Source: Halobellus captivus | GTDB lineage: Archaea > Halobacteriota > Halobacteria > Halobacteriales > Haloferacaceae | Length of the DNA stretch: 64,000 nt | Reading direction: 5' to 3' | Assembly (NCBI RefSeq): GCF_003697845.1 | Contig: NZ_RDQE01000001.1 | Coordinates: 1-64,000 of the forward strand | Shown: positions 1 to 54,373 of the stretch, piece after piece | Layout of the letters: every line of letters starts with the position of its first letter | How positions within the stretch are numbered: position 1 is the first letter of the stretch | Program-made: the position numbers and the translations under genes | Notes under the pieces: generated by a model | Seen by the model: the letters and a program-made list of their open reading frames with translations, nothing else | The model's database searches: none | Told to the model about the DNA's origin: nothing

Positions 1-82
1 CGGTGTACACAGTCGTCGCCTCCTCATTCCTCTCGCAAAGAAGCCTCGATAAGCCGCTGCTGTCACGCGGTTTCTCTCTTAG

Positions 83-1000
83 CTAAAGACGGATGATGCC
101 TACTACAACCTCACGTCCACCCACCACGATGCGGTCAGCACTGCCAGGGCAACGTTCCAGGTCGAGACTGGCTTCACCGAGACCCACGACACCGTCCATA
201 TTGCCCGCTACACCGGGACAGGGTGGACAGATCTCGGTGCTGACCGGATCAACCCTGGTGTCTACCAGGTGACCTTGGACGGGTTCAGCCGGTTCGCTGT
301 CTATGGGGTCAACGAGACCGATGGCCAGGAACCGGGTGATGGGACGAACGAGACCGATCCCGGTACCGAGCCCGGGACCAACGAGACGGATGGAACGACG
401 GCTCCCACCTGTGGCGATGGACAGTGTACCGGGAACGAGACCTGGGATTCCTGTCCGGGTGATTGTCCTAAACCGGATCGTGTCGTTGAGGCCGAATCTG
501 TACTAAATGCCGCAGAAGGCAATATCAGTCAGGGTGATCCAGGATACAGTGCGTTCCAACAGGCACAAAAAGCGTATGAGAATGAGAATTTTGAACGGGC
601 AGCAGAGCTCGCCACCCAGGCACTTGAACAGTACCGGGAGACACAGCAGGAGGGGCAGACAGTGCCGTGGCTGCCGATTATTGTTGGTGTGCTTGGTGTC
701 GTCCTTGTCGGTGCTTTTGTGCTGAAACGCAGGACCGCATCCGGTATAGTAAATGGGGAGTCGGGAAATGATCGAGACGAGGCTGGTCTAGATACACCAG
801 CACATGAGGTTGATGATCGTCTTGATGAGGTCTCTGACCGGGTTCGTGATGCAATTCAGGCAGGAACCTATCCGAAACGGACGCGGGAACGCATCTATGA
901 ACTCCTCAACGAAGCCATTGAGGCTGTCCAGCAGGATGATTATCTCAAGGCCAAACGTGTCCTTGATCATCTTGAAAACGTTATGGACGAGAACGCGTGA
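83..1000 (+). pseudogene. 5'-truncated surface glycoprotein with PGF-pre-PGF-like region and CGDG-C domain
   Basis: The frame is open from an in-frame TAG at 80-82 to the stop at 998-1000, but there is no ATG before a GTG at 269, and the coding pattern clearly begins upstream of that GTG. The first part (TGTGWTDLG, then FSRFAVYGV) resembles the end of the PGF-pre-PGF domain of archaeal surface proteins. It is followed by a Thr/Gly-rich linker with N-glycosylation-type NETD repeats, a cysteine motif (CGDGQCTGNE, DSCPGDC) that I associate with DPANN and other archaeal exported proteins, a helical region, one transmembrane segment near VPWLPIIVGVLG followed by KRR, and an acidic helical cytoplasmic tail. 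It looks like the C-terminal part of a type I membrane surface protein that lost its N-terminus. A frameshift near base 80 is the alternative. Confidence 0.6.
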
Positions 1001-1656: not shown

Positions 1657-2139
1657 TTAACGGATGTGGGTGGTATCGAGGCGTCCGACCGGTCGGAGGT
1701 CGCCTTCGTCGAACCAGAGGTTGAGTTCACGTTCCGCAGCATCTCGGTCCTCTGCTGCGTGGACCAGGTTCTTGACCGGTTTGGCTTCGTTGTTGGCGTG
1801 CTGGGTGGTGATGTGGGCGTGGTCGCCACGGATGGTTCCCGGTGCTGCGTTGTGGGGTTCTGTGTCGCCGACGAGTTTGCGGGCTGTCGAGACGGCCTCG
1901 ACTCCTTCGTAGGCAACGGCGATGACCGGTTGATCCACCATGTAGTCGAGTAAGGTGGGGTAGAAGTCTTCGTCGTGGTGTTCCTCGTAGTGCTGCGCGA
2001 TACGGTCTTCACTGGGGTAGGTGAGTTCGAGGCCGAGGAGTTCGAGGCCGGCGGTCTGGAACCGTTCCAAGATGTCAGGGATCAGGCCGCGTTGGACACC
2101 GTCCGGTTTGACCAGTACAAGCGTTCGCTCTACCGCCAT
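1657..2139 (-). CDS. ndk: Nucleoside diphosphate kinase
   Basis: A 160-residue protein matching the NDK family over its whole length: N-terminal TLVLVKPDGVQRG with the phosphate-binding lysine at residue 11, APGTIRGD at about 99-106, and KNLVHAAED with the phospho-accepting histidine at 127. NDK transfers the gamma phosphate from ATP to NDPs through that histidine. The usual His-Gly-Ser-Asp context is altered to His-Ala-Ala-Glu-Asp and there is a longer 107-122 loop, so it is a divergent copy. It lies inside the mobile element, not in a housekeeping context, and is probably a second copy in the cell that could boost dNTP supply during element replication (inference). It stands alone between unrelated genes. 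Confidence 0.9.
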   Translation of the reverse strand: MAVERTLVLVKPDGVQRGLIPDILERFQTAGLELLGLELTYPSEDRIAQHYEEHHDEDFYPTLLDYMVDQPVIAVAYEGVEAVSTARKLVGDTEPHNAAPGTIRGDHAHITTQHANNEAKPVKNLVHAAEDRDAAERELNLWFDEGDLRPVGRLDTTHIR

Positions 2140-2199: not shown

Positions 2200-3009
2200 T
2201 CACTGGAGATCCGGTGGCAGCCTGGTATCGGTTTCTGTGAGTCGTGTTGCACCCTGTTCGATAGCCTGATCCACGGAAAGCTGGTCGTTCATCACGAACA
2301 GGTGCTGGCCTCCTTGACGAAGGCGGACGACTGCATTCCGGAGGATGGTACTGTGGTCCTGATCACGGTCGATGACGACGCAGTAGGGCTCAATGTCGTC
2401 GACGACATTGATCTGGTAGAAGTGCTCGTGAAGGATGTCCTCGACTGTCTCCAGGTCGTTGTCAGTGGAGACTTCGAAGCGGTAGGCATCCGGGTTGTAG
2501 TACTGCCGGAGCTTCTCGAAGACGTCGTCGTTGTCGAAGTACTGTTTGAACAGGTAGGTGTCGTTGCTCTCGAAGACGTTGATCTGGTCGCGGTCGACGT
2601 CGAAGGCCGGCATCGCATACTGGACTATGGGCCGGGTCCACGTGAAGATTCCCTGCAATCCAGCGCGTAGCCTGGCTGTCAGCGTTGTCTCCGTTGGTTC
2701 AGTGATCGGTTCCCAGGTCTCGGTCTCGGCGTCGTATGTGACGTTGTTCCACTGAAGCTGGTAGACGTCGCCGTGTGTTCCTGGCTGTGGTCTGATGCTG
2801 ACGGTGACCGGTGTGCCGTGAATAAGCAGGTCCTGGACAGTTCGTAGAACCTGGTTCGGGGAGAGTGTGTCGTGGGTGCCGCCAACGATCTCGGTGTTGT
2901 CTCCGGTTGTCAGGGATAACCACCTGTACGAGTCACGTGGGTGAGACAGTGGTATCTGTGTTGGGCGAGGGCCGGGTTCGGTTGCCGGATCTAGCGAACA
3001 GGGTGTCAG
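2200..3009 (-). CDS. Hypothetical protein with probable CTG start
   Basis: I do not recognise this protein. The frame is strongly coding (acidic, haloarchaeal codon use) far upstream of the first TTG at 2658; segments such as TGDNTEIVGG and VYQLQWNNVTYD are read from about 2913 onward. No ATG or GTG exists in frame. A CTG at 3009-3007 overlaps the TGA stop of the upstream nuclease gene as CTGA, just where ATGA would be expected, and gives 269 residues. An alternative CTG at 2913 follows an AGGTGG Shine-Dalgarno-like stretch. It is the third gene of an ArsR regulator-nuclease operon, so it may work with the nuclease. The C-terminal half is acidic and mixed alpha/beta by inspection. Confidence 0.6.
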   Translation of the reverse strand: MTPCSLDPATEPGPRPTQIPLSHPRDSYRWLSLTTGDNTEIVGGTHDTLSPNQVLRTVQDLLIHGTPVTVSIRPQPGTHGDVYQLQWNNVTYDAETETWEPITEPTETTLTARLRAGLQGIFTWTRPIVQYAMPAFDVDRDQINVFESNDTYLFKQYFDNDDVFEKLRQYYNPDAYRFEVSTDNDLETVEDILHEHFYQINVVDDIEPYCVVIDRDQDHSTILRNAVVRLRQGGQHLFVMNDQLSVDQAIEQGATRLTETDTRLPPDLQ

Positions 3010-4043
3010 GTCTGGTTGACGGTGACGCGGGTGGTCAGGTTATCAGTGGTCTCGGAGAGGTCTTTCTCGAACTCGGCCGGGTTCGTCAAGTAGCGGTCTG
3101 GATCATAGATGAAACAGAGGAGTGTCTCACAGTTCGTATCGCTCCGGTAGTGCTCTTTGTCTTCTGCCAGCTCTGTCCGTATCTTTTTCGGGTGGCTGTT
3201 GGCTCTGACGCGTTTGGTCTCGATCCCGATGTTTTCGTCTTCGAGCAAGAAATCGATCCGGGGTGAGACACCGGCGTGACGTTTCAGGTAGTTCTCGTCC
3301 CGGATATCATCGAAGTACAGCCGCAGAAGTGCATGGAGCAGATACTGGACATCGTATTCATCATCCATCTGCAGTGGTGGCCGATCCCGACTTCGATTCG
3401 CTAACTGCCGTGTGATGTGCCCAAACCGTTCGAAAAGCAGCTCCACCTTCTCGACCGCTCCCCGATCAAGGGAGACCGGGTTCTCTAACTCTAACTCGGG
3501 GACCTCACCTGTATACCGCGTACGGAAGAAGTCATAGAAGACGTGGCTGAACGTCAGGACATTACGGAAATCCTCCGCCTGTCCACTATCGATGACTTCA
3601 CCGGACGGAATCTCGACGCCTTCCCACTCATCATCTTCGAAAAAGCCGAGCTCGATCGCACGTGGACCAACCCTGAACGCAAGGGCATCGAACGAGTGTT
3701 CCACGCGAGGCGGTGTCCCTCGCATCGAGCGTTGTTCCTCCCGCTCATAGGTCCCGTCGACGTCCTCGATGGTCTCGAAAAACGTGGGATGGCTCTCGGA
3801 TTCAAGCCAGGAGTCCACGAGCTCGACGACCGTGACGATCTGGTCCGTGGTGAGCTGACTGAGTGTCACCGATTCTTCCTGATCGGTCTTGACCTTCTGT
3901 CCCGGCCCCAGTGTGGCCTCTTCCCTGGTGACGTGAAGGTCGATACCGTCAGTGGTTTCGATCAGGATAACGCTGACCAGGACGGATTTGTCCTTGTCCG
4001 TGGTCGAGGCGGTCTTGATCAGTGAGGTCAGGCTCTTGCGCAC
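3006..4043 (-). CDS. DpnII/MboI-like PD-(D/E)XK nuclease domain protein
   Basis: A 345-residue protein starting at GTG. The C-terminal 120 residues carry the pattern YLLHALLRLYFDD, then RIDFLLED, IGIETKRVR and ETLLCFIYDPDRY. These correspond to the nuclease fold with catalytic Asp (RIDF) and Glu-x-Lys (IETK), as in the DpnII/MboI-related restriction-endonuclease-like family. The N-terminal two thirds are not recognised and may be a sensor or effector part. It lies 6 bases downstream of an ArsR-type regulator, and the next gene begins inside its stop codon, so the three form an operon, divergent from the ubiquitin-like operon. A role in defence against foreign DNA is likely but inferred. Confidence 0.75.
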   Translation of the reverse strand: MRKSLTSLIKTASTTDKDKSVLVSVILIETTDGIDLHVTREEATLGPGQKVKTDQEESVTLSQLTTDQIVTVVELVDSWLESESHPTFFETIEDVDGTYEREEQRSMRGTPPRVEHSFDALAFRVGPRAIELGFFEDDEWEGVEIPSGEVIDSGQAEDFRNVLTFSHVFYDFFRTRYTGEVPELELENPVSLDRGAVEKVELLFERFGHITRQLANRSRDRPPLQMDDEYDVQYLLHALLRLYFDDIRDENYLKRHAGVSPRIDFLLEDENIGIETKRVRANSHPKKIRTELAEDKEHYRSDTNCETLLCFIYDPDRYLTNPAEFEKDLSETTDNLTTRVTVNQT

Positions 4044-4049
4044 CGGTCA

Positions 4050-4481
4050 TCACCCCTCCGTCTCGCTGCCTGTTTCATCGATACGCCGCCACTTTTCAGT
4101 CTTCACCGCTCGTTCCAGTTCTGACTCATCGACCGGGAGACCAGGTCCTTCACTGTGTTCCTCCCGGATAGCTGTTTCAAGCTCTTCTGCCCGTTCCATG
4201 ATATTGAGGAGTCGATCAGCATCCTGTTCCAAAAGCTGGATGACGTACTCGCCCAGCGGTGTCAGTTCGAAATCACTGTCAACGTCCGTTGGGCGGAACA
4301 TAAGCCCTTCCCGGATGAGGATCCGTTGATGATCCTGTAGTGCACCCCGTGACATACCGACTCTGTCAGCGGCCTCTGTCAGGGGATCTCCGTCCTCGAC
4401 TGCTTGGAGGATCGCAATCCGGGCTGGATGCCCGACACCTTTGAACATATCAGCAAGACGCTCCAGATCGTCTGCATCCAT
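4050..4481 (-). CDS. ArsR-family winged-helix regulator
   Basis: A 143-residue protein. Residues 5-75 match an ArsR-type winged helix: LADMFKGVGHPARIAILQAV, then DPLTEAADRVGMSRGALQDHQRILIREGL, followed by a wing and TPLGEYVIQLL. The C-terminal part is helical and charged. It has no metal-binding Cys cluster, so it is not an arsenic sensor. It is the first gene of the leftward nuclease operon and faces the rightward ubiquitin-like operon across a 149-base divergent promoter region holding two direct repeats. It probably controls one or both operons (inference). Confidence 0.8.
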   Translation of the reverse strand: MDADDLERLADMFKGVGHPARIAILQAVEDGDPLTEAADRVGMSRGALQDHQRILIREGLMFRPTDVDSDFELTPLGEYVIQLLEQDADRLLNIMERAEELETAIREEHSEGPGLPVDESELERAVKTEKWRRIDETGSETEG

Positions 4482-4553
4482 AGCGAAGTTCTGTTCCTCG
4501 TTTCCCAGCGTTCACAGTCCTAGCAGGTATATCTGTGGCACTCGAGAACCGCA

Positions 4554-4586
4554 TTGATACAGTAAAAACATTTGATACAGAGAAAA
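4554..4586. promoter_or_regulatory. Two direct repeats in the divergent promoter region
   Basis: The motif TTGATACAG followed by two bases and AAAA occurs at 4554-4567 and again at 4572-4585, an 18-base spacing, between the ArsR-type regulator and the ubiquitin-like gene. It is a reasonable operator for the neighbouring regulator. A TATA-like TTAAG stretch follows at about 4587. Confidence 0.4.
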
Positions 4587-4630
4587 CCTTAAGCATGTCT
4601 GTCCTGTACCGTCTCACTGGAGGAGGGACG

Positions 4631-4864
4631 ATGTCGAATGAGAAACGGACCATTCAGGTCGAAGGTGAACAGTTGACCATCGATCAGACCACCACAGTAC
4701 AGGAGCTGAAAGAAGCCGTCGGGGCCGCCGACGATGATATCGCGACCTACACCGAAGACGGTGAAATCGTTGCCCTCGGCAACCGGGACAACGTCCATCG
4801 TAACGTCCCAGAAGGTGCGAATATCAGTTTCCAGCCGGGGAAAGGCACCGTCTTCGGCCACTAA
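4631..4864 (+). CDS. Ubiquitin-like (beta-grasp) modifier protein
   Basis: A 77-residue protein chosen to start at ATG 4631 because a strong Shine-Dalgarno (GGAGGAGGGA) ends three bases before it. The sequence has the layout of a ubiquitin-like fold: beta strand TIQVEGEQLTI, helix VQELKEAVGA, then short strands ending in NISFQPGKGTVFGH. The C-terminus is Gly-His rather than Gly-Gly, so loss of one residue would expose a terminal glycine, a job suited to the JAB peptidase encoded two genes downstream. With an E2-like gene and a JAB-E1 fusion in the same operon, it is most likely the protein that is conjugated to targets. It is distinct from the haloarchaeal SAMP proteins, which function without an E2. 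Confidence 0.75.
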   Translation: MSNEKRTIQVEGEQLTIDQTTTVQELKEAVGAADDDIATYTEDGEIVALGNRDNVHRNVPEGANISFQPGKGTVFGH

Positions 4865-4884
4865 CCCGCCCGAGGTGACTGGTC

Positions 4885-5256
4885 ATGGATCAGCAACGCC
4901 TCGTACGGGAGGTCAACGAACTCCAGCAGGACTGGCCGGTGAAATGGAGCCTGGATAAGCAGTACGTGATGATCACGACATACGGGTACCCACAGGGCTG
5001 GAGTCCACGGACGGCTCCCCTGTTTTTCAGTCTCCCCGATGTTTATCCGCGGCAGCCACCGGATGTCTTTCTCCCGCCCGATATGCGGTACAAGGGGTCG
5101 ACGGTCATCCATCAGCTGTCACCGAACGATGACGGCTGGTTCAAGTGGTGTATCGAGGAGTTGGACTGGAAGCCCAGGCATCACCGTCTCATGACGATGG
5201 TCGAGTTGATGAACCGGTCACTGACCAAGCCCTACCGTAGCCGGATCGTCAAATGA
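4885..5256 (+). CDS. E2-like ubiquitin-conjugating enzyme
   Basis: A 123-residue protein with the prokaryotic E2 (UBC-fold) layout: an N-terminal helix, strands including YVMITTYGYP, the loop LPDVYPRQPPDVFLPPDM that corresponds to the conserved 'YP..PP' region of E2 enzymes, and then WFKWCIEELDW. Cys89 in that motif is the only cysteine and the natural acceptor of the Ubl thioester. A C-terminal helix (MTMVELMNRSL) follows. It starts 20 bases after the Ubl gene and overlaps the JAB-E1 gene by the ATGA arrangement, so the three are translated together. E2-type proteins are rare in haloarchaea. Confidence 0.8.
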   Translation: MDQQRLVREVNELQQDWPVKWSLDKQYVMITTYGYPQGWSPRTAPLFFSLPDVYPRQPPDVFLPPDMRYKGSTVIHQLSPNDDGWFKWCIEELDWKPRHHRLMTMVELMNRSLTKPYRSRIVK

Positions 5257-6638
5257 ATCTCACACTGCCTGCACCCGTTCTGCAGCAGCTCCGCACCGAG
5301 CTTGTGCAGGACGACGAACTCGAACGGTTCGCGTACCTGTACTGTGGACAAACAGGGGATGACCTCCTGGCAGCGGAGGTCCATCCGGTTGACCGGGACG
5401 ACTTAGAGGTTATCTCAGAGGGTGCCTGCCGTCCGGACCTCGATGTTGAACGCGGTCATATCGAAGCCTGCATCAACGAGGGCTTGGTCCCGATCATGGT
5501 CCACAGCCATCCATTCGCTGATACACCTGGCTTTTCCGGTGTGGATGTAGCGACGATAGGGAATTACCACACGTGGCTGGCTGGGCTGTACCCTGACACG
5601 GTGTTCGGGTTCATCGTCATCGGTCGGAACGGGATCGCGACAACGGTCTATGACCCGGACCAGGACACATTCGTCGACCTGCCGGTGACGGTGTTGGGTG
5701 AGTGGATGGTGGAGCGGGAGTGGACACTGCCCTCCGAACACTCGGACACGGCGGTCACGGTTGACCACAGCCGCTACGACCGGAACATCCGGGCCGTGAC
5801 CGAGGATGGCCAGCAAGCGGTGGCATCGAGTTCCGTTGCAGTTGTCGGCTGCGGTGGTATCGGTTCGGTCCTCGTTGAGCAACTGGCTCGGCTTGGGGTC
5901 AAAGAGTTCACCTTGATCGATCCCGACAGCATCGAGGCATCCAACCTCCCACGACTGGTTGGATCCTTCCCTGAACACGTCGATCGACCGAAAGTCACGG
6001 TCCTACAGAACCATCTGTGGCACATCGCACCGGAATGTGAGGTCACCACCGTACAACAACCAGTCCAGGACGCAGCGGAGCATCTAGACGACATTGATGT
6101 GATCCTCGCCGGCGTGGACCAAGTCTCAGCACGGATGTGGCTCAACGAATATGCCGTCCGTCACCTGACACCGTACATCGATGCCGGCTCCATCATCGAA
6201 ACCGGTGACGATGAAGTAGTGGAAACGATGGATGGCTACGTCCAGACAATCGTTCCCGGTGTCAACGCCTGCTTCGACTGCCTCGACCGTGGTGACCACG
6301 AACAGGCCCGGCTCGAACAACTGACCGAGGACGAACTCGAGGAACAGATCGAGCGGGGCTATGTCGATGAATCCCAGCTTGTACCTGAACCAGCGGTCAT
6401 CCATCTCAACGGGACGGTGGCCTCATCAGCGGTCAACGAGTTCACAAAGCTGGTCACCGGATTCGATGTGCCGGCGGACTTCATCCGGTACGATGGCTTA
6501 GACAACGATGTAACGGAGGTATCGACCCACTGTTCCTCGACCTGTCTTACCTGTAGCAACCAGCTGGGTCGGGGGGATTACGCTGTCGACGATGACCCTG
6601 CTGAAGGCGATCCCCCAGGAACCCCTAACATGGCATGA
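5253..6638 (+). CDS. JAB peptidase-E1 (ThiF-like) fusion
   Basis: A 461-residue two-domain protein. Residues 20-130 are a JAB/JAMM metallopeptidase: acidic residues near E22/E24 and a perfect HSHP, seven residues, then SGVD (H84, H86, S95, D98). Residues 180-461 are an E1-type adenylation domain: VAVVGCGGIGSVLVEQLARLG (nucleotide site, near 195-215), LIDPDSIEASNLPRL, and two CxxC pairs (CFDC and CLTC) that would bind zinc. The E1 half would activate the Ubl and pass it to the E2; the JAB half would trim the Ubl C-terminus or remove conjugates. Bacterial antiviral Ubl operons usually encode these two activities as separate genes. Overlaps with both neighbours show tight translational coupling. 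Confidence 0.88.
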   Translation: MNLTLPAPVLQQLRTELVQDDELERFAYLYCGQTGDDLLAAEVHPVDRDDLEVISEGACRPDLDVERGHIEACINEGLVPIMVHSHPFADTPGFSGVDVATIGNYHTWLAGLYPDTVFGFIVIGRNGIATTVYDPDQDTFVDLPVTVLGEWMVEREWTLPSEHSDTAVTVDHSRYDRNIRAVTEDGQQAVASSSVAVVGCGGIGSVLVEQLARLGVKEFTLIDPDSIEASNLPRLVGSFPEHVDRPKVTVLQNHLWHIAPECEVTTVQQPVQDAAEHLDDIDVILAGVDQVSARMWLNEYAVRHLTPYIDAGSIIETGDDEVVETMDGYVQTIVPGVNACFDCLDRGDHEQARLEQLTEDELEEQIERGYVDESQLVPEPAVIHLNGTVASSAVNEFTKLVTGFDVPADFIRYDGLDNDVTEVSTHCSSTCLTCSNQLGRGDYAVDDDPAEGDPPGTPNMA

Positions 6639-6973
6639 CCGAGACCCTGATCTATCTGGTCCTCTGGCTGCTTTTCGGCATCTGCCTCCTGATCTGGATC
6701 TTTGCCGTGATCGGATCTGTGCTTGGGGCACTCATCCCGGGATCACGGACGAACTGGGACAACGCGAAACTCGGTCTCCTTGCCGTGGTTGCCTACCTTG
6801 TCGCTCGATGGCTCACCAACAGTGCTGATACCGGAGACAGAGACCACGGTAGTAACAGGCAGGATCGAGACCGGGGCGGTGGACCTGATCAAGGGAATGA
6901 GTGCTCGATCGAACAGTTGAGCGATGAAGCGGTCCTCGATGAGGTCTTTGGCCAGGACCGCCGCTTTCGATAA
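6635..6973 (+). CDS. Two-helix membrane protein of the ubiquitin-like operon
   Basis: A 112-residue protein with two hydrophobic segments (residues about 4-36 and 48-64), then a polar Asp/Arg/Gly-rich tail ending in an acidic stretch (LSDEAVLDEVFGQDRRFR). It overlaps the JAB-E1 gene by the ATGA arrangement and is thus the fourth gene of the operon. I recognise no family. It could be the membrane partner or target of the conjugation system; this is inferred only from position. Confidence 0.6.
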   Translation: MTETLIYLVLWLLFGICLLIWIFAVIGSVLGALIPGSRTNWDNAKLGLLAVVAYLVARWLTNSADTGDRDHGSNRQDRDRGGGPDQGNECSIEQLSDEAVLDEVFGQDRRFR

Positions 6974-7057: not shown

Positions 7058-7918
7058 TCAGGAGGTGTACTCACCGAGCCCTGCCTGTTCCGGTGGATCA
7101 CGAGTTTCACCTGGTTCTAGCTCTGGGACATGACTCCGTCCCTGTCCCTCGTACTCGATCTCGGCGCTGTAGAGTTCCAGATGGGCAGTGTCATCCATCC
7201 CGTACCGGTCTGCGTACCAGTCGATGAACCGGTACGCATCGTCCTCTGTCTCGAACAGGCCACGGACATCGTAGGGGTCGACCTCTTCCTGCACCAGCCG
7301 GTCCCCAGCCGGGTCGTACCAGAAAAACACCGTCTCGGGCGATGGATTCTCAATCTGGAGTCCATCCTCTGTCTCCGGGTACCCGCCGTCCGGGACGAAG
7401 TCCTCGATCCCGGACTGATCGGTCAGGACATCGACCGCGTCCCCGACCTTTTTCGCCCGTGCCTCGTACAGCGAGAAGCTCTCGTAGGTCTCTTTGTCGC
7501 CGTTTTCGGCACGGCGTTCGAGGTACGCTTCAGCGGCTTCCTCGTCCGGGAAAAACGGGATGGTCTGTTCGTCGTTGACCCCGGTGTGTTCCAGGGCGGA
7601 ACCGGTGTCAGGATCCAGCCAGTAGTACACCTTTGATGTCCGTTTCCCGTTGTGGAGGTCATCGAACCCGCCGTCCGTCCGGACCTCTGTTTCTCCGGTC
7701 TCGTCAAGCTGGTAGCCGGCTTCCTCAACCGCTTCCCGGTAGTGGAAGTCCGGGAAGTAGGTGTTGAGGTCCCACTGAAGTTCTCCGTCGTAGGGGTTCC
7801 GGAGGTTCATCCAGTACGGCTTCTCATCCTGCACGTACTGTTTGCGTTCCTCGTACCGTGCCGCCAGGGTTGCCGGATCATCAGTGTACTCTTCGATCAG
7901 GTACCACCCTTCAGTCAG
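7058..7918 (-). CDS. Acidic hypothetical protein with probable CTG start
   Basis: I do not recognise this 286-residue, very acidic protein (segments such as DTGSALEHTGVNDEQ, FFPDEEAAEAYLERR and FETEDDAYRFIDWYADRYG). The open frame runs much further upstream, but that part is a low-complexity shadow of the preceding gene. The biologically sensible start is CTG at 7918-7916 (L/M-TEGWYLIEEY), which overlaps the end of the DUF932-like gene by eight bases (CTGACTGA). No ATG or GTG is available near it. It is the last gene of a three-gene leftward operon. Confidence 0.6.
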   Translation of the reverse strand: MTEGWYLIEEYTDDPATLAARYEERKQYVQDEKPYWMNLRNPYDGELQWDLNTYFPDFHYREAVEEAGYQLDETGETEVRTDGGFDDLHNGKRTSKVYYWLDPDTGSALEHTGVNDEQTIPFFPDEEAAEAYLERRAENGDKETYESFSLYEARAKKVGDAVDVLTDQSGIEDFVPDGGYPETEDGLQIENPSPETVFFWYDPAGDRLVQEEVDPYDVRGLFETEDDAYRFIDWYADRYGMDDTAHLELYSAEIEYEGQGRSHVPELEPGETRDPPEQAGLGEYTS

Positions 7919-8933
7919 CGTAGGCTTGCCGAAGGTCTCTGACTGTTTCGCGTTCGCCGTCCCAGTACGGGTCGGTCTCGTCGGGCTGATCGATGTACTG
8001 GTTGGCCCGGTTCTCGACGGCCTGCTCGCCGAGGTAGTCCGCATCTGGGAGGCCGTAGTTCCCGTAGTCGAGGAGCTGGCTTGCGTCCTCGTACCCGTTG
8101 TCCAGAGCGTACTGTGGCACATCGTCGTCGACGTAGTGGGTCAGCGCGCGTGTGGCCGCGTTGTAGGTATCGTAGAGGCTGGGAACGTCGCTATCGACCT
8201 CCTCGTCCAGGGCATCGCGGAAGGTATCGACCGGTTCATCGAAGTACTGATCGATCCCGGTGTCCATCAGGACGAGGAGTGCTTCATCGTAGTTCTGGAA
8301 CTCGCGTTCCTGGGCGTCTTCCAGCCGGTCTTCGACCTCGTCAGCACCTTCGACCACGGCGTCGACGGCCTGGTGAGCTAGGCCTGGATTGTACGGATCT
8401 TGGTGGGACTGCTCGACGTGCATGTCGGAGACGAACGCCATCATGCCGTTGCTACAGACCTGGCGATATGCTCCAACATCGTACTTGAGCCCGTGGAACC
8501 CGGAGTGACCGCTGCGGACCTTGAGTCCAAGGTTGATCTCATCGCCATCGACCGGTTCGATCGTGGTATCGCCGTAGAAATCGACCTTCCCGGTCATCTT
8601 GTGGCCTGATCCGGAGATCGAGACCTGCCCCTCGACGTCGATCGCTCCGTCGTACTGTTCGACGGCGTTGCCGACCCCTTCGAGGATCTCACCGTACTGG
8701 ATCACATTGTACCAGTCTTCCGAGGACGAGACGTCCCCGACGAGGCGGCCGTCGTCGAGCCACACCGAGTCACGCCAGTTGATCTCTGCCCATTCATCGA
8801 GGTCTTCGTGGTGGCCGTAGGCCGGGTGTCGTTCGGCTTCTGGAAGGGTTTCTGCGACGTCGTAGAGTTCTTCGAGGCCGTCAAAGTGGTAGGTGTTCTC
8901 TGCGATTGGGTATCCACCCTGTGCCGGGGTCAG
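7911..8933 (-). CDS. DUF932-like phage/plasmid protein with probable CTG start
   Basis: About 340 residues. The core (SGSGHKMTGKVDFYGDT, then VRSGHSGFHGLKYDVGAYR, QVCSNGMMAF) is the pattern seen in DUF932-type proteins of plasmids and viruses, function unknown. The first GTG in frame (8765) would cut off about 56 codons of clearly coding sequence (YHFDGLEELYDVAETLPEAE and more). The upstream frame contains no ATG or GTG; a CTG at 8933-8931 overlaps the previous gene's TGA as CTGA. I use that start. It lies between two unknown genes in one operon and probably serves element maintenance (inference). Confidence 0.7.
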   Translation of the reverse strand: MTPAQGGYPIAENTYHFDGLEELYDVAETLPEAERHPAYGHHEDLDEWAEINWRDSVWLDDGRLVGDVSSSEDWYNVIQYGEILEGVGNAVEQYDGAIDVEGQVSISGSGHKMTGKVDFYGDTTIEPVDGDEINLGLKVRSGHSGFHGLKYDVGAYRQVCSNGMMAFVSDMHVEQSHQDPYNPGLAHQAVDAVVEGADEVEDRLEDAQEREFQNYDEALLVLMDTGIDQYFDEPVDTFRDALDEEVDSDVPSLYDTYNAATRALTHYVDDDVPQYALDNGYEDASQLLDYGNYGLPDADYLGEQAVENRANQYIDQPDETDPYWDGERETVRDLRQAYAD

Positions 8934-10384: not shown

Positions 10385-11788
10385 ATGATCCGAGTATATC
10401 ACCTCCTGATCGGGCTGCTCGTCGTTGGGTGCCTGCTGACAGTAGCTGTTCCCGCCTCGGCAAGTCACTCCGACCATCTCGTCGAACACACGATCCATTC
10501 ACCGTCTGAGGTCGAGACCGGAGAAGAGGCTACGATTTCAGGCCAGGTCACCAACCGAGAAGACGCCCGGCTGTTCATTGAGGTCACGGTCGGCGGAACC
10601 ACCGTCCTCAGTGAAGCTGTCGACCCCGATGCGACTGTCGAGTTTACTCACCAGCTGCGATTTGACCAAGCTGGCGAACGGAACGTCGATGTCGAGATCT
10701 ATGTAGCCGGTCAGCACCACACCACGGAGACAGCGACCATCGAGGTCACCGAGTCCCAGGATGACGGGGGTTTGCTGGATGTCGATCTCGTCGAGAAGAT
10801 TAAGCAGGCAGTCTACGCCCCGTTCAACGCGTTCGCGGACGCGGTCGTTGGTATTCTCACCCATCTGTTCACGAGCTATCCCGACGTCCACCCTAACCCT
10901 GATGTTCAGGAACTCCATCGGCTGTCTCTGATCGTTGCCTTCGCTCTCTCAACGCTGACTGTTGTCTTGGCCGGTATCCTGTTCCAGGTTGGACCGATCT
11001 TTGGCGTCTCCTATCGACAAGTGCGGATGCTGCTGCCCCGCGTTCTCATCGCTCTTGTCTTCGGGACGGTCAGCCCATTCCTTCTGCAGTACGCCGTTGA
11101 TCTGGCCGAAGCGCTCACAATCGCGTTCCGGCCCAGCAATCCTGGCTTCCTCGGGTCTGTCCAGTTAACCGGCGGTCTCATCGTTGTGGGATTCCTCGAT
11201 GCCTTCCTGCTCGCTGCGGTCGCGGCGATCTTCGTCGTCCGGGATGTTTATATCCTCTTTGCGGCAGCTGCCTCACCGCTTATCGCACTGGGCTGGGCGC
11301 TTCCCTACACCCGGCGATTTGCACACAGCTTCATTGGCGTCTTCTGGGCCTTCCTCCTGATCGGGCCGCTCGATATGATCGTGTTCCGGCTCATGCTCTC
11401 ATTGCTCCAGCCGGCCGGGGTGGAGGTCCCGCACTGGTTGCTGGCTATGGGCGGGTTCGCCATGCTGCTTGGGATTCCGTACATGGTGCTGTCTACCGGG
11501 CAGTCTATGGCCGGGGTACTGGCCGGTATGGCGGTCGGAGAAGGCAGCGGCTGGTTGTCGAACACTGGTGATGGCGGAACGCATGCTGCCCAGAGCCAGC
11601 AGCTTCGGCAGCGTCGCCAGGAACGCGAGCTCATCAAGCGGTACGCTGAGAGTGATAGCCGGCGTCGACGCCGGACCAGCCCTGGCGAACACTACAGCTC
11701 GGGAGGTATCAACCGGCGTACTGAGCCTTCGGAGTCCCGCGATCTCGAGTCGAACCCGTTCTGGAACAAGGACGGTGATGACCTATGA
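10385..11788 (+). CDS. VirB6/TrbL-like membrane channel protein with exported Ig-like domain
   Basis: A 467-residue protein. Residues 1-26 are a signal peptide (LLIGLLVVGCLLTVAVPASA). Residues about 30-125 form an extracellular beta-sandwich-like domain (SPSEVETGEEATISGQVTNRED, then ETATIEVTE). Residues about 175-390 have six to seven transmembrane helices. The C-terminal 90 residues are cytoplasmic, basic and disordered. The position between a pilin-like gene and a VirB4-type ATPase, overlapping the latter by ATGA, supports a VirB6-type inner-membrane channel role. The exported domain in front is an archaeal feature. Confidence 0.65.
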   Translation: MIRVYHLLIGLLVVGCLLTVAVPASASHSDHLVEHTIHSPSEVETGEEATISGQVTNREDARLFIEVTVGGTTVLSEAVDPDATVEFTHQLRFDQAGERNVDVEIYVAGQHHTTETATIEVTESQDDGGLLDVDLVEKIKQAVYAPFNAFADAVVGILTHLFTSYPDVHPNPDVQELHRLSLIVAFALSTLTVVLAGILFQVGPIFGVSYRQVRMLLPRVLIALVFGTVSPFLLQYAVDLAEALTIAFRPSNPGFLGSVQLTGGLIVVGFLDAFLLAAVAAIFVVRDVYILFAAAASPLIALGWALPYTRRFAHSFIGVFWAFLLIGPLDMIVFRLMLSLLQPAGVEVPHWLLAMGGFAMLLGIPYMVLSTGQSMAGVLAGMAVGEGSGWLSNTGDGGTHAAQSQQLRQRRQERELIKRYAESDSRRRRRTSPGEHYSSGGINRRTEPSESRDLESNPFWNKDGDDL

Positions 11789-13986
11789 TACGGTTCCGCA
11801 TTCCCCGCGATCCGCGTGTCGCTACCAAGTTCTTCGCCCAGTTCACCGCACGCGATCTCGTCAGGTTAGGTGTTTCCCTCATTGTGGCCTACATCGCCAT
11901 TCCGGGGGGAACGGTCGTTCAGACGACGGGCTTCATCGTCGCTGCTGCGGTGAGTGCTGGCTGGTATTTGTGGCGTCCGTACGGGAACGCGGTTGATGTC
12001 CACGCCGTCAACGCCGTGCGCTGGTACGTCGGGAAAACCCGTGTGGACGGCCCGGATGTGGTAGCAGAAAGCCGGTCAGCCGGCGATGTCATCACCTCCG
12101 GGAGCTATCTCACGGCATTCATCGAGGTGTCGCCAACGAACCTCTCGATGAAGACGGAGGCAGAGCAGGCCGCACTGCACAGCATCTACCAGGAGCTGCT
12201 GGAGACGGTGTCGTACCCTGTGAAGGTGCATTCGAGGCAGGAGATCGCATCCGAGCAAACAGAGTATGGCCGGAATATAGCCGAGAAAGACGTCGAACCT
12301 GAGCCCCTCAAAGAGAGCTATCTGGACTACTGGAAGCGGGTGTGCAGCGACCAGCCTACGACCACCCGTCATTACGTGTCGCTGCGCGTTCCGCGGCAGC
12401 AGGATGGGGCGAGCGGCTGGCTTGCCAGCTTCCTCGGTGGCGACGATATCGACTACCGGTCCGATAATGCGAAGGCTGAGTTGGATCGCCGGTGTCGAGA
12501 GGTGGTTAGTTGCCTGAATGCTGCTGATATGGATGCCGAGCGGGTTACTGGGAGCCGGCTGACCGATGTGGTCCACCTGTTCGAGGAGGACACGCCGGAT
12601 GTCTCGCCACGGTTCACGTCGACGACGGAGTACGGAGACTCTGCCTCCCGGCGTCCTGGCGGGGCTCCGGATGCCTGGCGGCAAACGTTCCAGTTGACGG
12701 AGTTCCCGCGGAGTCAACGGCTTGGGTGGCCGACTGAGCTGCTATCGGTTGATGGCCGGGTTGAGGTGACTCAGGTCGTCAGGCCGGAGAACTCAGCGAA
12801 GGCTACGAAGCAGTTGACGCGGACGATCGAGAAACTGTCGGCAGAGATCGACTCGTGGCTTCGGGCAGGCCATCTGGGGACGAACGATCTTGAGGCGAAA
12901 CAGGATGATGCAGACTGGATACTGGGTCGGCTGACCGACCGTGAGGACAAAGCGTTCACCTACCGGTGCTATGTCACGGTCCACGGACGGACCGTCGAGG
13001 AGTGTCGCCAGACGGCCTCCCAACTGCAGAATGTCTTGGATACGATGCAGGTCGGCTACGAGGAGCCGGTCTTCCAGACCCATAACGTGTTCAAGGCTGT
13101 GTCGCCGTTCTACCCGGACCCGCACACCGACGGCCATCTGCTCCCCGGGACGGCTGTAGCTGCCGGGTTCCCGTTCTCGACACAGGTCCCGCAGGATACC
13201 TCGGGGGTGCTGTTCGGAGAGGATCCATCCAGCGGCCGGCCGATCGTGCTTGACCGGTTCACCTGGAGTAGCCATTCCCTTGCCCGGATGGGCATGGTGG
13301 GGTCCGGGAAGTCCTACGCGGCCAAGCTGGAGCTGCTGCGGTCGTGGCTGGCCTACGATGATCTGCAGGTGATCGTGGTTGACCCGAAGCGAGAGTACGG
13401 CGATGTTGTCCGAACGCTTGGAGACTCCCGTGGCTGTATCCAGACGGTCAGTGAGGACACGGACTACCGGTTCGACCACGACACCATCTGCTTCCAGGTC
13501 GAGAAACGCGGCCAGTCCGAGGACATCGACCGGCTGACTGACTTGGTCGCTGAAATCTACGAGGAGACGAGTCAAGACCAGCGGAAGACGATCGTCCTGA
13601 TCGACGAGGCCCGGCTGTTGCTGAACGATGAACAGGGCCGAGAGGTCCTGAACAGGTTCGTCCTCGAGGCCCGGGATACCCGGACAGCTGTGACGCTGGT
13701 CACCCAGAATGCCTCCCACTTCACACACAGCCGGGAAGGCAGGGAAATCTTGGACAATATGCCGGCGAAGCTGTTCATGCGCCACGACCGGGTGCCGGAC
13801 TCCGTTGTCCAGTATTTCGATCTGTCCCAGCGGGAGAAACAGGAGCTGTTCAAGCTCCGGACGGGGACCGATGCCGAGTACAGCGAGTGCTTGGCGCAGG
13901 TCAGCGACCGTGTGGACACCACGGCACGGGTCCGGGCGACCGAGGCAGAGCATACGATCATCAAGGCGGCTGACGGAGGGGACTAA
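11785..13986 (+). CDS. VirB4/TraC-type ATPase with N-terminal VirB3/PrgI-like membrane domain
   Basis: A 733-residue protein. The first ~80 residues carry two hydrophobic helices after a basic start (RDLVRLGVSLIVAYIAIP, GFIVAAAVSAGWYLW), the layout of PrgI/VirB3 proteins fused to VirB4. The Walker A motif GMVGSGKSYAAK is at about residue 501, Walker B TIVLIDEARLLL at about 600, and a downstream VTLVTQNASHF segment matches the motor core of conjugative ATPases. It powers pilus assembly and substrate transfer at the membrane. It lies in the same operon as the VirB2- and VirB6-like genes. Confidence 0.88.
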   Translation: MIRFRIPRDPRVATKFFAQFTARDLVRLGVSLIVAYIAIPGGTVVQTTGFIVAAAVSAGWYLWRPYGNAVDVHAVNAVRWYVGKTRVDGPDVVAESRSAGDVITSGSYLTAFIEVSPTNLSMKTEAEQAALHSIYQELLETVSYPVKVHSRQEIASEQTEYGRNIAEKDVEPEPLKESYLDYWKRVCSDQPTTTRHYVSLRVPRQQDGASGWLASFLGGDDIDYRSDNAKAELDRRCREVVSCLNAADMDAERVTGSRLTDVVHLFEEDTPDVSPRFTSTTEYGDSASRRPGGAPDAWRQTFQLTEFPRSQRLGWPTELLSVDGRVEVTQVVRPENSAKATKQLTRTIEKLSAEIDSWLRAGHLGTNDLEAKQDDADWILGRLTDREDKAFTYRCYVTVHGRTVEECRQTASQLQNVLDTMQVGYEEPVFQTHNVFKAVSPFYPDPHTDGHLLPGTAVAAGFPFSTQVPQDTSGVLFGEDPSSGRPIVLDRFTWSSHSLARMGMVGSGKSYAAKLELLRSWLAYDDLQVIVVDPKREYGDVVRTLGDSRGCIQTVSEDTDYRFDHDTICFQVEKRGQSEDIDRLTDLVAEIYEETSQDQRKTIVLIDEARLLLNDEQGREVLNRFVLEARDTRTAVTLVTQNASHFTHSREGREILDNMPAKLFMRHDRVPDSVVQYFDLSQREKQELFKLRTGTDAEYSECLAQVSDRVDTTARVRATEAEHTIIKAADGGD

Positions 13987-16436: not shown

Positions 16437-18353
16437 ATGGACACCGAACAGGTCAAGACGTTGGTGGAGAACAGTGGGGACCTCCGGGAGACGTTCCTCG
16501 GCTTCCAAGAGTCCAGTCTCGGTGTCGAGGAAAACATCCAGGTGCCAGACGACAGCCGCTTCATACATGTCCTGAACGTCGGTCCGACCGGGTACGGGAA
16601 GACCCAGTTGATGATCCATGCCGTCCTGCAGGACGCAGAGAAAGACCACGGGATCTGTGTTGTCAATCCGAAAGGTGGGGCGATCGATGAGATCATCGAG
16701 AAGCTCCCGGAGGACCGGTTAGATGATATCGTCTACATCAATCCAGGCCGGGACAAGGTGACCCCAATCAACGTCTTGGAACCCCACGTCACCGAGGATA
16801 TGACGGAGGCACAGATGGAGAACCAGAAAGAGATCATCATCTCGGATATGATCGATCTGTTCCGCCGGTACAGCGAGAACTGGGGTGACCGGTTCGGCCG
16901 GGTCCTTGAAACCCTGCTTCGTGCCCACATCGATCTCAATATCCGCCACGACCAGTCCAACACCTTACTCGATGTCTTCCGCTGTGTCGTCAACGAGGAC
17001 GCCCTCACCGACCTGATCGATGAGACCGAAGACCAGGTCGTACGGGAACAGCTGGTCCGGGTCAAAGAGGATATGTCCAGTTACGAAATGGAGCCGTTGC
17101 AGCGCCGGCTGAATGACTTCGTGATGAATCCGACCGTTCGGAGGGTGATCGCCGCCGACGAATCCGGCATCGACTTCCGCGACGCCGTCAACGACGGGAA
17201 AATCATCCTGGTCGACATCCAGAAAGGCGAGGTCGGGGACATGGTCGCGAAACTGGTCGGCAGCATCGTGATCACCAAGGTCTGGGCCGCCACCCAGAGC
17301 CGGATCACCATGCCAGAGGACGAACGCGAACCGTTCATGCTGTACTGCGATGAGTTACAGAACTTCTCAGGGGAAGGAAGCAACTTTACGAAGATATTGA
17401 GTGAAGCCCGCGAATATCAGCTTGGGACCTGGCTTGCTACTCAATTTCTCCATCAAATGAGTTCTACAATGCGACGAGCTGTGTCGAACAACTGTAGGAC
17501 CAAGATTTTCTTCAATCCGAGCGGCTCAGAGGATCTCTCCCGGATCACGAATATGCTCAACGGTATCGATAAGGCCACGCTCAAATCACTGGGGAAATTC
17601 CGCGCTGCCATCCAAAAACCAGCGGAAGGCCAACACCATGACGCTGTTATCTTCGATACCTACCCTCCGTGGGAATCGGATAATGACCGGGACCTGGATA
17701 AGATTAAGCGGGACAAGACATTCCCCACTGCGACGGGCGGGGACCACATCGTTGGGCAGAGTCTGGGCCAGGCAGCCAACGCCGGCGGCGACCGCCATCG
17801 CGAGCTCCTGTTGGAGGCGAAGGAATTTCTGGAAGAGACCTTGGAAGCACAGGTGAATCTACTGTATCAAGAGCAGAGCGATGAGAAGCCGGATGGTATT
17901 GTTATGCAGAACAGCTCGATCAGCAACTTAGAAGCAGAGCAGAGTACCTTGACACGGCCGGTCAAAGTTCTCCGTAATGTGCTTCGTGCGGCCCAACAGG
18001 ATCGTGATGTCGTCTTCGCTGTGGAACAGGGGAAAGCAACGAAGCTGAAAAATATCGTTATGGATCCTGTGAATCGACGTGGAGAAATGCACGAAGACGA
18101 GCAGGGATCGTTCAGCTACTATATGGATGAGGAGGGTGAGGCGTTTACCGATGTTGAAGCAGTACATGAGGTAGGATTTCGGATTCTTGAGATCGGAGAT
18201 AATGGCGCTATGTGGCATGATCAGGATCTCGATACAAACTGTCCAGAGATAGAGAATAATGATAGAGAGGCTCTCAAAGACTTCTGCCTATATCGAGATG
18301 AAGATGGCTTCTGTAGCCAATTGGAACAACCGTGTGTGCTTCAATCTGGCTGA
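16437..18353 (+). CDS. VirD4/TraD-like coupling ATPase
   Basis: A 638-residue protein. Walker A GPTGYGKTQ is at about residue 50, directly after a short N-terminus. Other family features are VVNPKGGAIDEI, the PINVLEP segment typical of coupling ATPases, HTH-like helices, Walker B FMLYCDELQNF at about 300, and ATQFLHQMSSTMRRAVSNNCRTKIFF. No transmembrane segment is seen, so it must be recruited by other proteins. It would bring the DNA or protein substrate to the secretion channel. It is separated from the rest of the conjugation operon by an inserted opposite-strand gene. The C-terminal 200 residues are not recognised. Confidence 0.8.
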   Translation: MDTEQVKTLVENSGDLRETFLGFQESSLGVEENIQVPDDSRFIHVLNVGPTGYGKTQLMIHAVLQDAEKDHGICVVNPKGGAIDEIIEKLPEDRLDDIVYINPGRDKVTPINVLEPHVTEDMTEAQMENQKEIIISDMIDLFRRYSENWGDRFGRVLETLLRAHIDLNIRHDQSNTLLDVFRCVVNEDALTDLIDETEDQVVREQLVRVKEDMSSYEMEPLQRRLNDFVMNPTVRRVIAADESGIDFRDAVNDGKIILVDIQKGEVGDMVAKLVGSIVITKVWAATQSRITMPEDEREPFMLYCDELQNFSGEGSNFTKILSEAREYQLGTWLATQFLHQMSSTMRRAVSNNCRTKIFFNPSGSEDLSRITNMLNGIDKATLKSLGKFRAAIQKPAEGQHHDAVIFDTYPPWESDNDRDLDKIKRDKTFPTATGGDHIVGQSLGQAANAGGDRHRELLLEAKEFLEETLEAQVNLLYQEQSDEKPDGIVMQNSSISNLEAEQSTLTRPVKVLRNVLRAAQQDRDVVFAVEQGKATKLKNIVMDPVNRRGEMHEDEQGSFSYYMDEEGEAFTDVEAVHEVGFRILEIGDNGAMWHDQDLDTNCPEIENNDREALKDFCLYRDEDGFCSQLEQPCVLQSG

Positions 18354-27995: not shown

Positions 27996-28004
27996 CTACC
28001 AGCT

Positions 28005-28763: not shown

Positions 28764-28766
28764 CAT

Positions 28767-34170: not shown

Positions 34171-34231
34171 CGATCTGATCCTCACGCAACGAGGAGGTCT
34201 TTTTTAATAATCGCTTCTTGGTGTGACCTAT

Positions 34232-37704: not shown

Positions 37705-37770
37705 TAGCTATGATGGTATCTCCACTGAATAAGGTCTACCGGCTGGACAGGTCCAAAGCAGTAAGAGCCA

Positions 37771-39309: not shown

Positions 39310-39321
39310 CGCAAACCACCT

Positions 39322-39848: not shown

Positions 39849-39869
39849 TCACGACATGCTCAAAGAACA

Positions 39870-53248: not shown

Positions 53249-54373
53249 CTATTCGATGCTGTTGACGGCGTCGGTCTGTCTGTCGACTGAGCTGTGTTCG
53301 TACTTCTCGGTGGTCCGTTTGGATTTGTGACGGCACTGCTGGGCGGCGACAGCCAGCCCTTCTTCATCAGCGATGTAGGTCGCTGTGCTGTGGCGGATGC
53401 TGTACGGTGTCAGGTCGCGGTTCTCCAAGTCTAATCCGGCTTCCTCGGCGACGTTGCGGAAGACGGTGCGGAACGAGTCTTTGTCGTACCGGTTCCCGTA
53501 CTTGGTGAGCCAGAGAGCGTCCCGGCCGTCGTATTTCTCTCGTTGCTCCCGTTCATCGATCCATCGCTTGAGGATGGACACGGTCTCGGTTTTGAGGGCG
53601 ACGATCCAGTTCTCCCGGTTCTTGCTGGATTCCTCGCGGGGGATACGGAGGACCCCGTTGTCGGTATCGACCCACTGGCTGTTGGCCCGGCCGACCTCGC
53701 ACGGACGTAGGCCCGCATCCAGGGCGGTGTGGATCATCGAGGTGTACTTGAACGAGTTCGCTCGGTTCCAGTCCTGCTTCGTGATCTGGTCTTTCGGCTT
53801 CTGCAGTCGCTGTGCGAGGTAGGTCTTCCACCGTCCCCGTTCCTCTGGGGTCACCGAGTTGTAGTGGGGGACACTGCCGTATTCCATCGCTGCTTCACGG
53901 AGTCTGCGGCGGTCCTGCCGTGTCAGGTAGTCTCGGGGCTGGTAGTTCGTCGATGGGTCGCTGTACTCAATCTTGGGGTCCCATTCGACGTCACTGCCGC
54001 GGGCGTTCCGTTTCCACTTGAACAAGGTCTTGGCGGCTTTCTGGTAGTGGCACTTCGTGGATTCTTTGTAGTCTTGGCGGGCCAGCCATCGCATCCAGGT
54101 GTCGGCGTGGTCGGTGGTGAGGTCCTGGATGTAGCGGCCTTTGCGGTCCCAGATGAAGCGGTAGAAGATGTCGAGGCGGTTCATCCGGTTCTTGGCGGTG
54201 GTGTGGCTGTAGCCTTCTGCCTTGGATGGGTTCTTGCCAAGGGATAGCATCCATTCGGCGAGTTCGCGGCGGTGTTCGCGGTAGGTAATCTCCTGTTTGG
54301 GGTTGAGAAATTCTTGTGCGTCCTCGGTGACGAGGACGATCCCGTCGACTTTGTTATCTTCGCTATGCGGCAT
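53249..54373 (-). CDS. int: Tyrosine recombinase (integrase)
   Basis: A 374-residue protein. The N-terminal part is a SAM-like core-binding domain (EHRRELAEWMLSLGKNPS). The C-terminal catalytic domain has the arginine of box I in ALDAGLRPCEVGRANS and the box II motif TPYSIRHSTATYIADEEG (YxxRH), with H and K in CRHKSKRTTEKYEHSS and the nucleophilic tyrosine in TEKYEH. The start is supported by a GGAGGG Shine-Dalgarno and an upstream ATTTAAAT TATA box near 54420. It integrates the element next to the tRNA-Thr 3' end, 200 bases away. Confidence 0.93.
   Translation of the reverse strand: MPHSEDNKVDGIVLVTEDAQEFLNPKQEITYREHRRELAEWMLSLGKNPSKAEGYSHTTAKNRMNRLDIFYRFIWDRKGRYIQDLTTDHADTWMRWLARQDYKESTKCHYQKAAKTLFKWKRNARGSDVEWDPKIEYSDPSTNYQPRDYLTRQDRRRLREAAMEYGSVPHYNSVTPEERGRWKTYLAQRLQKPKDQITKQDWNRANSFKYTSMIHTALDAGLRPCEVGRANSQWVDTDNGVLRIPREESSKNRENWIVALKTETVSILKRWIDEREQREKYDGRDALWLTKYGNRYDKDSFRTVFRNVAEEAGLDLENRDLTPYSIRHSTATYIADEEGLAVAAQQCRHKSKRTTEKYEHSSVDRQTDAVNSIE

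What the first reader, a model, noticed from the sequence alone, without database searches (positions are those of the whole stretch)
4631..6973. Complete E2-dependent ubiquitin-like conjugation operon in an archaeal mobile element
Four tightly linked genes encode a 77-residue Ubl, an E2-like protein with a single cysteine (C89), a JAB-E1 fusion and a two-helix membrane protein; three of the junctions are ATGA overlaps or very short gaps. Established knowledge: haloarchaea use SAMP proteins with UbaA but no E2, and bacterial BIL and CBASS Ubl systems act against phages. Inference: this is an archaeal antiviral or element-protective system. It differs from the usual bacterial layout in fusing JAB and E1 and in adding a membrane protein.
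Basis: partly seen in the sequence, partly recalled or inferred. Interest (0 to 1): 0.88.

Follow-up and report, generated by a model that had tools for sequence, protein, structure and literature searches.

The report
Archaeal ubiquitin-like conjugation operon with cysteine E2
A salt-loving archaeon carries, on a mobile DNA element, a compact set of genes for attaching a ubiquitin-like tag to other molecules; it is the archaeal cousin of a bacterial system called Bub, but keeps the cysteine that the bacterial carrier enzymes sampled here lack and is usually linked to the cell membrane.

Summary
The operon is real. At 4631-6973 (+) lie a 77-aa ubiquitin-like protein (Ubl), a 123-aa E2, a JAB-E1 fusion and a small membrane protein, with a 20-bp gap and two ATGA overlaps. 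Predicted folds are beta-grasp and UBC; the E2's best PDB match is Citrobacter BubB, the JAB-E1's is BubCD. The membrane part holds: 12 of 14 haloarchaeal loci have a membrane protein after E1 (7) or a hydrophobic C-terminus on E1 (5). New here: the E2 active-site Cys (C89) is kept in 14/14 haloarchaeal and 3/3 Methanocella-like loci, while 14/14 bacterial relatives have Ser or a WFSWH motif; E1 has no conserved catalytic Cys; the bacterial partner DUF6527 is absent from 17/17 archaeal loci; five loci add a Cys-less second E2; a divergent winged-helix regulator is conserved in 6 loci. The operon lies on an integrative, probably conjugative element. An antiviral role is plausible but untested; even bacterial Bub is not shown to protect against phage. 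Verdict: new variant of a known kind.

The parts
4050..4481 (-). divergent winged-helix/HTH gene (143 aa), probable regulator of the operon
   Evidence: HTH_20 6.7e-05; homologues divergent and adjacent in L031, L033, L034, L035, L045 (30-40% identity)
4482..4630 (.). 149-bp divergent intergenic region (probable promoters); GGAGG ribosome-binding site just before the Ubl start
   Evidence: sequence
4631..4864 (+). ubiquitin-like protein, 77 aa, ends ...PGKGTVFG|H; Gly76 is the predicted mature C-terminus
   Evidence: AlphaFold2 pLDDT 84.6, beta-grasp; Foldseek TM 0.71 to bacterial multi-ubiquitin protein 8u38; invariant F75-G76
4885..5256 (+). E2 (UBC-fold), active-site Cys89
   Evidence: Prok-E2_E 24.5 bits, just under the 25 cut-off; pLDDT 87.7; best PDB match Citrobacter BubB 9eae_C, Z 13.2, rmsd 2.5, 115 aligned; Cys conserved in all primary archaeal E2s
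5253..6638 (+). JAB/JAMM isopeptidase fused to ThiF/E1 adenylation domain (BubCD-like)
   Evidence: ThiF 8.1e-49; best PDB match Citrobacter BubCD 3.3e-19; JAMM E24/H84/H86/D98 and two CxxC invariant
6635..6973 (+). small membrane protein, 112 aa (strong helix at residues 8-26, weaker second helix, acidic C-terminal tail)
   Evidence: hydropathy; same position after E1 in 6 other loci
3006..4043 (-). DpnII/MboI-type restriction endonuclease domain protein beside the operon (context, not shown to be part)
   Evidence: Pfam 2.7e-46; not found near the other operons
11785..13986 (+). VirB4-like conjugation ATPase of the host element
   Evidence: AAA_10 5.4e-14; a copy lies near the operon in Halovivax, 7.9e-145
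16437..18353 (+). TraG/VirD4-like coupling protein of the element
   Evidence: TraG-D_C 1.3e-06
53249..54373 (-). tyrosine recombinase of the element, beside tRNA-Thr 54571-54643
   Evidence: Phage_integrase 1e-21; tRNA; G+C shift from about 0.55 to 0.70

Best explanation
This is an archaeal branch of the class 6e/Bub ubiquitin-like conjugation systems. Proposed cycle: the JAB domain trims His77 to expose Gly76 of the Ubl (inferred from the conserved Phe-Gly and the variable tails); the E1 domain adenylates Gly76 (inferred from the intact ThiF domain); because the E1 has no conserved catalytic cysteine, the adenylate passes directly to Cys89 of the E2 (inferred); the E2 attaches the Ubl to targets, probably lysines, close to the membrane, because the E1 or its partner is membrane-anchored (inferred from gene order and from fusions in sister loci); JAB reverses the modification. 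The divergent winged-helix gene probably controls expression. The cassette is carried by integrative elements and plasmids as an accessory stress or conflict module, most likely defence-related, but no target or trigger is known.
For: Same core gene order in 14 haloarchaeal loci. Fold models match UBC/BubB and beta-grasp proteins. JAB-E1 best match is BubCD. In the E1 tree the Bub-type and other JAB-E1s are separated from MoeB/UbaA at 100/99, and the haloarchaeal set forms one group (79/92). E2 Cys in 14/14 haloarchaeal and 3/3 Methanocella-like loci against 0/14 bacterial ones. JAMM residues invariant; the only invariant E1 cysteines are two CxxC pairs; where the cell's own UbaA has 'PDCATTGVLG' the operon's E1 has 'VPEPAVIHLN'. 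Several Ubls already end at Phe-Gly and others carry 1-31 extra residues. Membrane protein in 7 loci and hydrophobic E1 C-terminus in 5 (best 15-residue hydropathy 1.8-3.1, against -0.3 to 1.4 in bacterial E1s). Patchy spread: 9 of 391 haloarchaeal genomes, no other genome of the same genus in the sample.
Against: No biochemical evidence of conjugation in any archaeal member. The window E2 misses the Prok-E2_E cut-off by half a bit. The separate membrane proteins are mostly not recognisably homologous to each other, and two loci (L029, L043) have no membrane part. In three Methanocella-like genomes the genes lie in one shared chromosomal context, which fits a stable cellular role rather than mobile defence. 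Direct E1-to-E2 transfer is deduced only from the lack of a conserved Cys.
Confidence: 0.72

Rival explanations
1. Dedicated antiviral defence system: the Ubl is attached to viral or host proteins on infection and blocks the virus or kills the cell.
For: Patchy distribution and location on plasmids or integrative elements; a restriction-enzyme gene beside it and defence-like genes elsewhere on the element; related bacterial Bil operons are antiphage (literature, cited in PMC13373217).
Against: Bub operons have not been shown to protect against phage (PMC13373217). The restriction gene is not conserved near the other operons. The Methanocella-like versions have a stable chromosomal position.
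Confidence: 0.4
2. The cassette serves the conjugative element itself (surface exclusion, control of the transfer machinery or its own maintenance), with the Ubl tagging membrane components of the transfer apparatus.
For: The operon lies close to VirB6/VirB4-type genes in the window and in Halovivax L045, where that gene block is shared; membrane linkage; a further element gene (window 7911-8765) is shared with L033, L034, L035 and L045.
Against: No relatives of the window's T4SS genes were found near the other operons within the stretches searched (up to about 20 kb each side where held). L029 and L043 sit next to metabolic genes.
Confidence: 0.2
3. The small membrane protein is an effector (pore former) or a substrate released or activated by Ubl conjugation, not an anchor for the E1.
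For: Membrane effectors are common in defence operons (own knowledge); sequences diverge fast and some loci have two such genes.
Against: In five sister loci the hydrophobic segment is fused to the E1 C-terminus, which points to localisation.
Confidence: 0.3
4. A sulfur-carrier system (ThiS/MoaD with a MoeB-like enzyme), not protein conjugation.
For: Weak ThiS hits for the Ubl; MoeB/ThiF-like E1 domain.
Against: E2 with conserved active-site Cys, fused JAB, and no sulfurtransferase gene in the operon; the genome has its own UbaA-type enzyme with the usual Cys.
Confidence: 0.04

Closest known systems
Bub (bacterial ubiquitination-like) operons = class 6e of Iyer, Burroughs and Aravind 2006
   Same: Gene order Ubl - E2 - JAB/E1 fusion; Phe-Gly near the C-terminus in several bacterial Ubls; E2 fold closest to BubB; E1 closest to BubCD; no conserved E1 cysteine outside the CxxC pairs; often on plasmids
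   Different: Archaeal E2 keeps Cys (bacterial: Ser or WFSWH); single Ubl domain; no DUF6527 gene; membrane protein or membrane segment; optional second Cys-less E2; different regulator
Bil (BilABCD, ISG15-like) antiphage operon
   Same: Ubl, E1, E2 with Cys, JAB protease
   Different: Bil has a two-domain Ubl, separate JAB and E1 genes and a Cys-bearing E1 (PMC11354881); here JAB and E1 are fused and the E1 lacks a conserved Cys
SAMP/UbaA of haloarchaea
   Same: Ubl activated by a ThiF-fold E1; JAMM proteases exist
   Different: SAMP conjugation needs no E2 (PMC11354881); UbaA has the crossover-loop Cys; the same genome carries a UbaA-type gene separately
Caldiarchaeum Ub-E1-E2-RING cluster
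   Same: Archaeal E2-dependent conjugation set
   Different: Eukaryote-like E1 with its own Cys domain and a RING E3 (PMC11354881); no JAB-E1 fusion (own knowledge)

Membership tests
Bub / class 6e operon | JAB domain fused to E1, closest to BubCD | tested here: met
   PDB best hit BubCD 3.3e-19; E1 tree groups JAB-E1s apart from MoeB/UbaA at 100/99
Bub / class 6e operon | Gene order Ubl, E2, JAB-E1 | tested here: met
   same in bacterial L090, L091, L093, L097, L104
Bub / class 6e operon | E2 without the active-site cysteine (described as such in PMC1779556) | tested here: not met
   Cys in 14/14 haloarchaeal and 3/3 Methanocella-like loci; none in 14 bacterial E2s
Bub / class 6e operon | Zn-finger-like partner protein (here equated with DUF6527) in the operon | tested here: not met
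   tblastn finds DUF6527 in 8/8 bacterial control loci and 0/17 archaeal loci
Bub / class 6e operon | Covalent conjugation of the Ubl to targets | not testable with these tools
   needs biochemistry
Bil (BilABCD) | Separate JAB and E1 genes, E1 with catalytic Cys | tested here: not met
   one fused gene; no conserved E1 Cys outside CxxC pairs
SAMP/UbaA | E1 with crossover-loop Cys | tested here: not met
   own UbaA has PDCATTGVLG where this E1 has VPEPAVIHLN
CBASS Cap2/Cap3 | E2-E1 fusion next to a CD-NTase | tested here: not met
   E2 is a separate gene; no CD-NTase hit among the operon and flanking proteins scanned
UBC-fold E2 | UBC fold with a Cys in the active-site loop | tested here: met
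   model and VIA Z 10.7 to UBE2A, 13.2 to BubB; C89 with a following W-x-P
Beta-grasp Ubl | beta-grasp fold with C-terminal Gly | tested here: met
   model, Foldseek, invariant F75-G76

The most novel reading that the evidence does not exclude
A membrane-held archaeal conjugation machine in which an E1 without a catalytic cysteine hands its Ubl-adenylate straight to a cysteine E2, and whose target is a membrane component, possibly a lipid. The Ubl C-terminus (Phe-Gly with a short removable tail) resembles that of Atg8/LC3 (own knowledge). Against specificity: several bacterial Bub Ubls without a membrane partner also have Phe-Gly there.
Probability: 0.08. Interest if true: 0.93.

Novelty: new variant of a known kind. 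Interest (0 to 1): 0.63.

Why it matters
The 2006 description calls the class 6e E2 catalytically inactive because it lacks cysteine, and the bacterial operons sampled here have Ser or a WFSWH motif there. Archaeal relatives with the same gene order keep an invariant cysteine, so the thiol may be ancestral and lost in bacteria, or regained in archaea; the archaeal loci make that testable. They also place an E2-dependent conjugation system in genetically tractable haloarchaea, where only the E2-less SAMP system is established, and they link it to the membrane.

Tried and rejected
First genome-contig scan with the single E1 sequence found no relatives; the alignment query did. Viral contigs gave only distant ThiF-type matches and phage records no E2 relative. 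The key Bub papers (PMC12885553, PMC12145246) and the Bil paper (PMC11476048) are not held, so statements about Bub rest on PMC13373217, PMC1779556, PDB names and sequence. A direct repeat of the tRNA-Thr end elsewhere in the window was not found; the other element end lies beyond the contig start, so integration is argued from gene content, tRNA and G+C only. Homology among the separate membrane proteins was tested and mostly not found. The idea that the operon always travels with one conjugative element was tested and rejected: only L045 shares the T4SS block within the stretches examined. VIA-align lists of other E2s and ubiquitin-like proteins are fold matches, not evidence of function.

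Full report
Observation. The window holds four tightly linked + strand genes: Ubl 4631-4864, E2 4885-5256, JAB-E1 5253-6638 and a membrane protein 6635-6973. The Ubl/E2 gap is 20 bp; the other two junctions are ATGA overlaps. The Ubl start is preceded by GGAGG.

Identity. Pfam gives ThiF at 8.1e-49 for the E1 part and a Prok-E2_E match just under its cut-off for the E2 (24.5 against 25 bits); the Ubl gives only weak ThiS hits and the membrane protein nothing. The best solved relative of the JAB-E1 is Citrobacter BubCD, 3.3e-19; the JAB part alone of a close homologue also picks BubCD first, weakly. AlphaFold2 models built from haloarchaeal homologues give a UBC fold (pLDDT 87.7) and a beta-grasp fold (pLDDT 84.6). 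The E2 model matches Citrobacter BubB best (Z 13.2, rmsd 2.5, 115 residues), ahead of UBE2A and other E2s at about 10.7. The Ubl model matches ubiquitin, ISG15 and bacterial multi-ubiquitin proteins.

Relatives. Four haloarchaeal plasmid records (Natrinema, Salinigranum, two Natribaculum) and further genomes carry the same operon. Together with the window they make 14 non-redundant haloarchaeal loci. In a class-wide sample 9 of 391 genomes hold a close JAB-E1 and no other genome of the window's own genus in that sample does. Three of four genomes of one further order in the phylum, of about 3.2 Mb and probably Methanocellales (my inference from genome size and number of species), hold a more distant version with the Ubl fused to the E2 and a shared chromosomal context. 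Bacterial relatives on plasmids have Ubl - E2/UBC - ThiF (JAB-E1) - DUF6527, often with extra genes. This is class 6e of Iyer et al. 2006, 'PolyUbl, inactive E2-/RWD like UBC fold domain, multidomain protein with a JAB fused to an E1 domain, and a metal-binding protein' (PMC1779556), to which the operons now called Bub correspond (PMC13373217; PDB names). Hence the JAB-E1 fusion is not new.

What is different in archaea. (1) The E2 active-site column is Cys in 14/14 primary haloarchaeal E2s and in all 3 Methanocella-like loci; in 14 bacterial E2s it is Ser (10, mostly W-x-R-W-S-R-H) or the region reads W-F-S-W-H (4). Iyer et al. also note that the bacterial domain lacks the cysteine. (2) DUF6527 was found in 8/8 bacterial control loci and 0/17 archaeal loci. 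(3) Seven haloarchaeal loci have a small membrane protein after E1 and five others have a hydrophobic stretch at the very C-terminus of E1; two have neither. Two of the five fused segments pass a standard 19-residue hydropathy threshold; the other three are shorter, 15-residue stretches, all above the bacterial controls. (4) Five haloarchaeal loci (L004, L028, L030, L031, L040) carry an additional E2 without Cys, four of them with its own Ubl, reminiscent of Ubc13/UEV pairs (own knowledge). (5) A divergent winged-helix gene precedes the operon in 6 of 14 loci, all with a separate membrane protein.

Catalytic logic. JAMM residues E24, H84, H86 and D98 are invariant. The Ubl ends in invariant Phe-Gly followed by 0 to 31 residues; in several loci it already ends at Gly, so JAB must do more than trim there. 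The only invariant E1 cysteines are two CxxC pairs, expected to bind zinc; the loop that carries the catalytic Cys in the cell's own UbaA ('PDCATTGVLG') reads 'VPEPAVIHLN' here. Shown: presence and conservation of residues. Inferred: direct transfer of the Ubl from the adenylate to E2 Cys89, lysine targets, membrane location.

Evolution. In a tree of E1 domains the JAB-E1s of these systems separate from MoeB/UbaA with 100/99 support; the haloarchaeal sequences form one group (79/92) and the bacterial Bub sequences another set, with deep branches not firmly resolved. The E1s with fused hydrophobic tails form one clade (100/99), so the fusion probably arose once. Whether the Cys or the Ser/His state is ancestral is not settled.

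Setting. The window's left 54 kb is an integrated element: VirB4-like (5.4e-14), TraG-like (1.3e-06) and a tyrosine recombinase (1e-21) beside tRNA-Thr, with G+C about 0.55 against 0.70 to the right. The far end is beyond the contig start and no attachment repeat was found. Halovivax locus L045 shares the VirB4 and neighbouring genes close to its operon; L033, L034 and L035 share another element gene. The operon is thus accessory and mobile in haloarchaea.

Function. The most likely role is an accessory stress or conflict module, plausibly antiviral, but this is not shown. [quoted passage not shown] The stable context in the methanogen-like genomes argues for caution. A role for the element itself remains possible.

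Novelty. No paper found in the searchable library describes Bub-type operons in haloarchaea, but the main Bub papers are not held, so prior mention cannot be excluded. Because two features attributed to class 6e/Bub are tested and not met (Cys-less E2, DUF6527), I file it as a separate archaeal branch that works like Bub rather than as a Bub member.

Noticed in passing
L138 3947-4785 and L139 (reverse complement) 4877-5508: Two genomes of family f4 hold a Ubl ending in Phe-Arg (Gly lost) with a Cys-less E2, and no JAB-E1 in the 10 kb read, near vWA, DnaK-like and transglutaminase-like genes: a possibly non-conjugating remnant or adaptor module.
   Followed up: partly
L096 2321-5353: A second haloarchaeal system in Halorubrum sp. 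CBA1229: a Ubl-E2-like fusion, JAB-E1 and a KTSC-domain protein; similar 337-aa E2-type proteins in three further genomes.
   Followed up: partly
L019, L022, L024, L027: Other haloarchaeal proteins of about 560-600 aa with JAB-like and E1 domains form a separate deep group; their operons were not examined.
   Followed up: no
window 25230-35356: Gene block with a phosphodiesterase/PglZ-like protein (921 aa), a 1282-aa ATPase-like protein, a HerA-like helicase (best PADLOC match mad8) and a coiled-coil protein; looks like an undescribed defence-type cluster.
   Followed up: partly
window 36343-46457: Schlafen/AlbA protein, HATPase protein and a 1581-aa MkoA-like helicase: further defence-like cargo on the element.
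   Followed up: partly
window 1657-2139: A nucleoside diphosphate kinase gene (7.2e-41) on the low-G+C element side of the window, unusual as mobile-element cargo.
   Followed up: no
window 1-107: The contig start matches short stretches in many haloarchaeal plasmids, one annotated as an IS5-family transposase, so the contig probably ends in an insertion sequence.
   Followed up: no
L040 about 5304-5530: The second Ubl gene of Halolamina pelagica is frameshifted (sequencing error or decay) while the neighbouring E2 and E1 are open.
   Followed up: partly
L043 5280-5588: Haloglomus Ubl has a 31-residue tail after Phe-Gly, far longer than in the others.
   Followed up: no
L002 2652-5213: In Salinigranum the operon lies next to queC/queE/folE/6-PTPS and a tRNA-guanine transglycosylase-like gene on a plasmid, possibly a 7-deazaguanine DNA or RNA modification cluster.
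   Followed up: no
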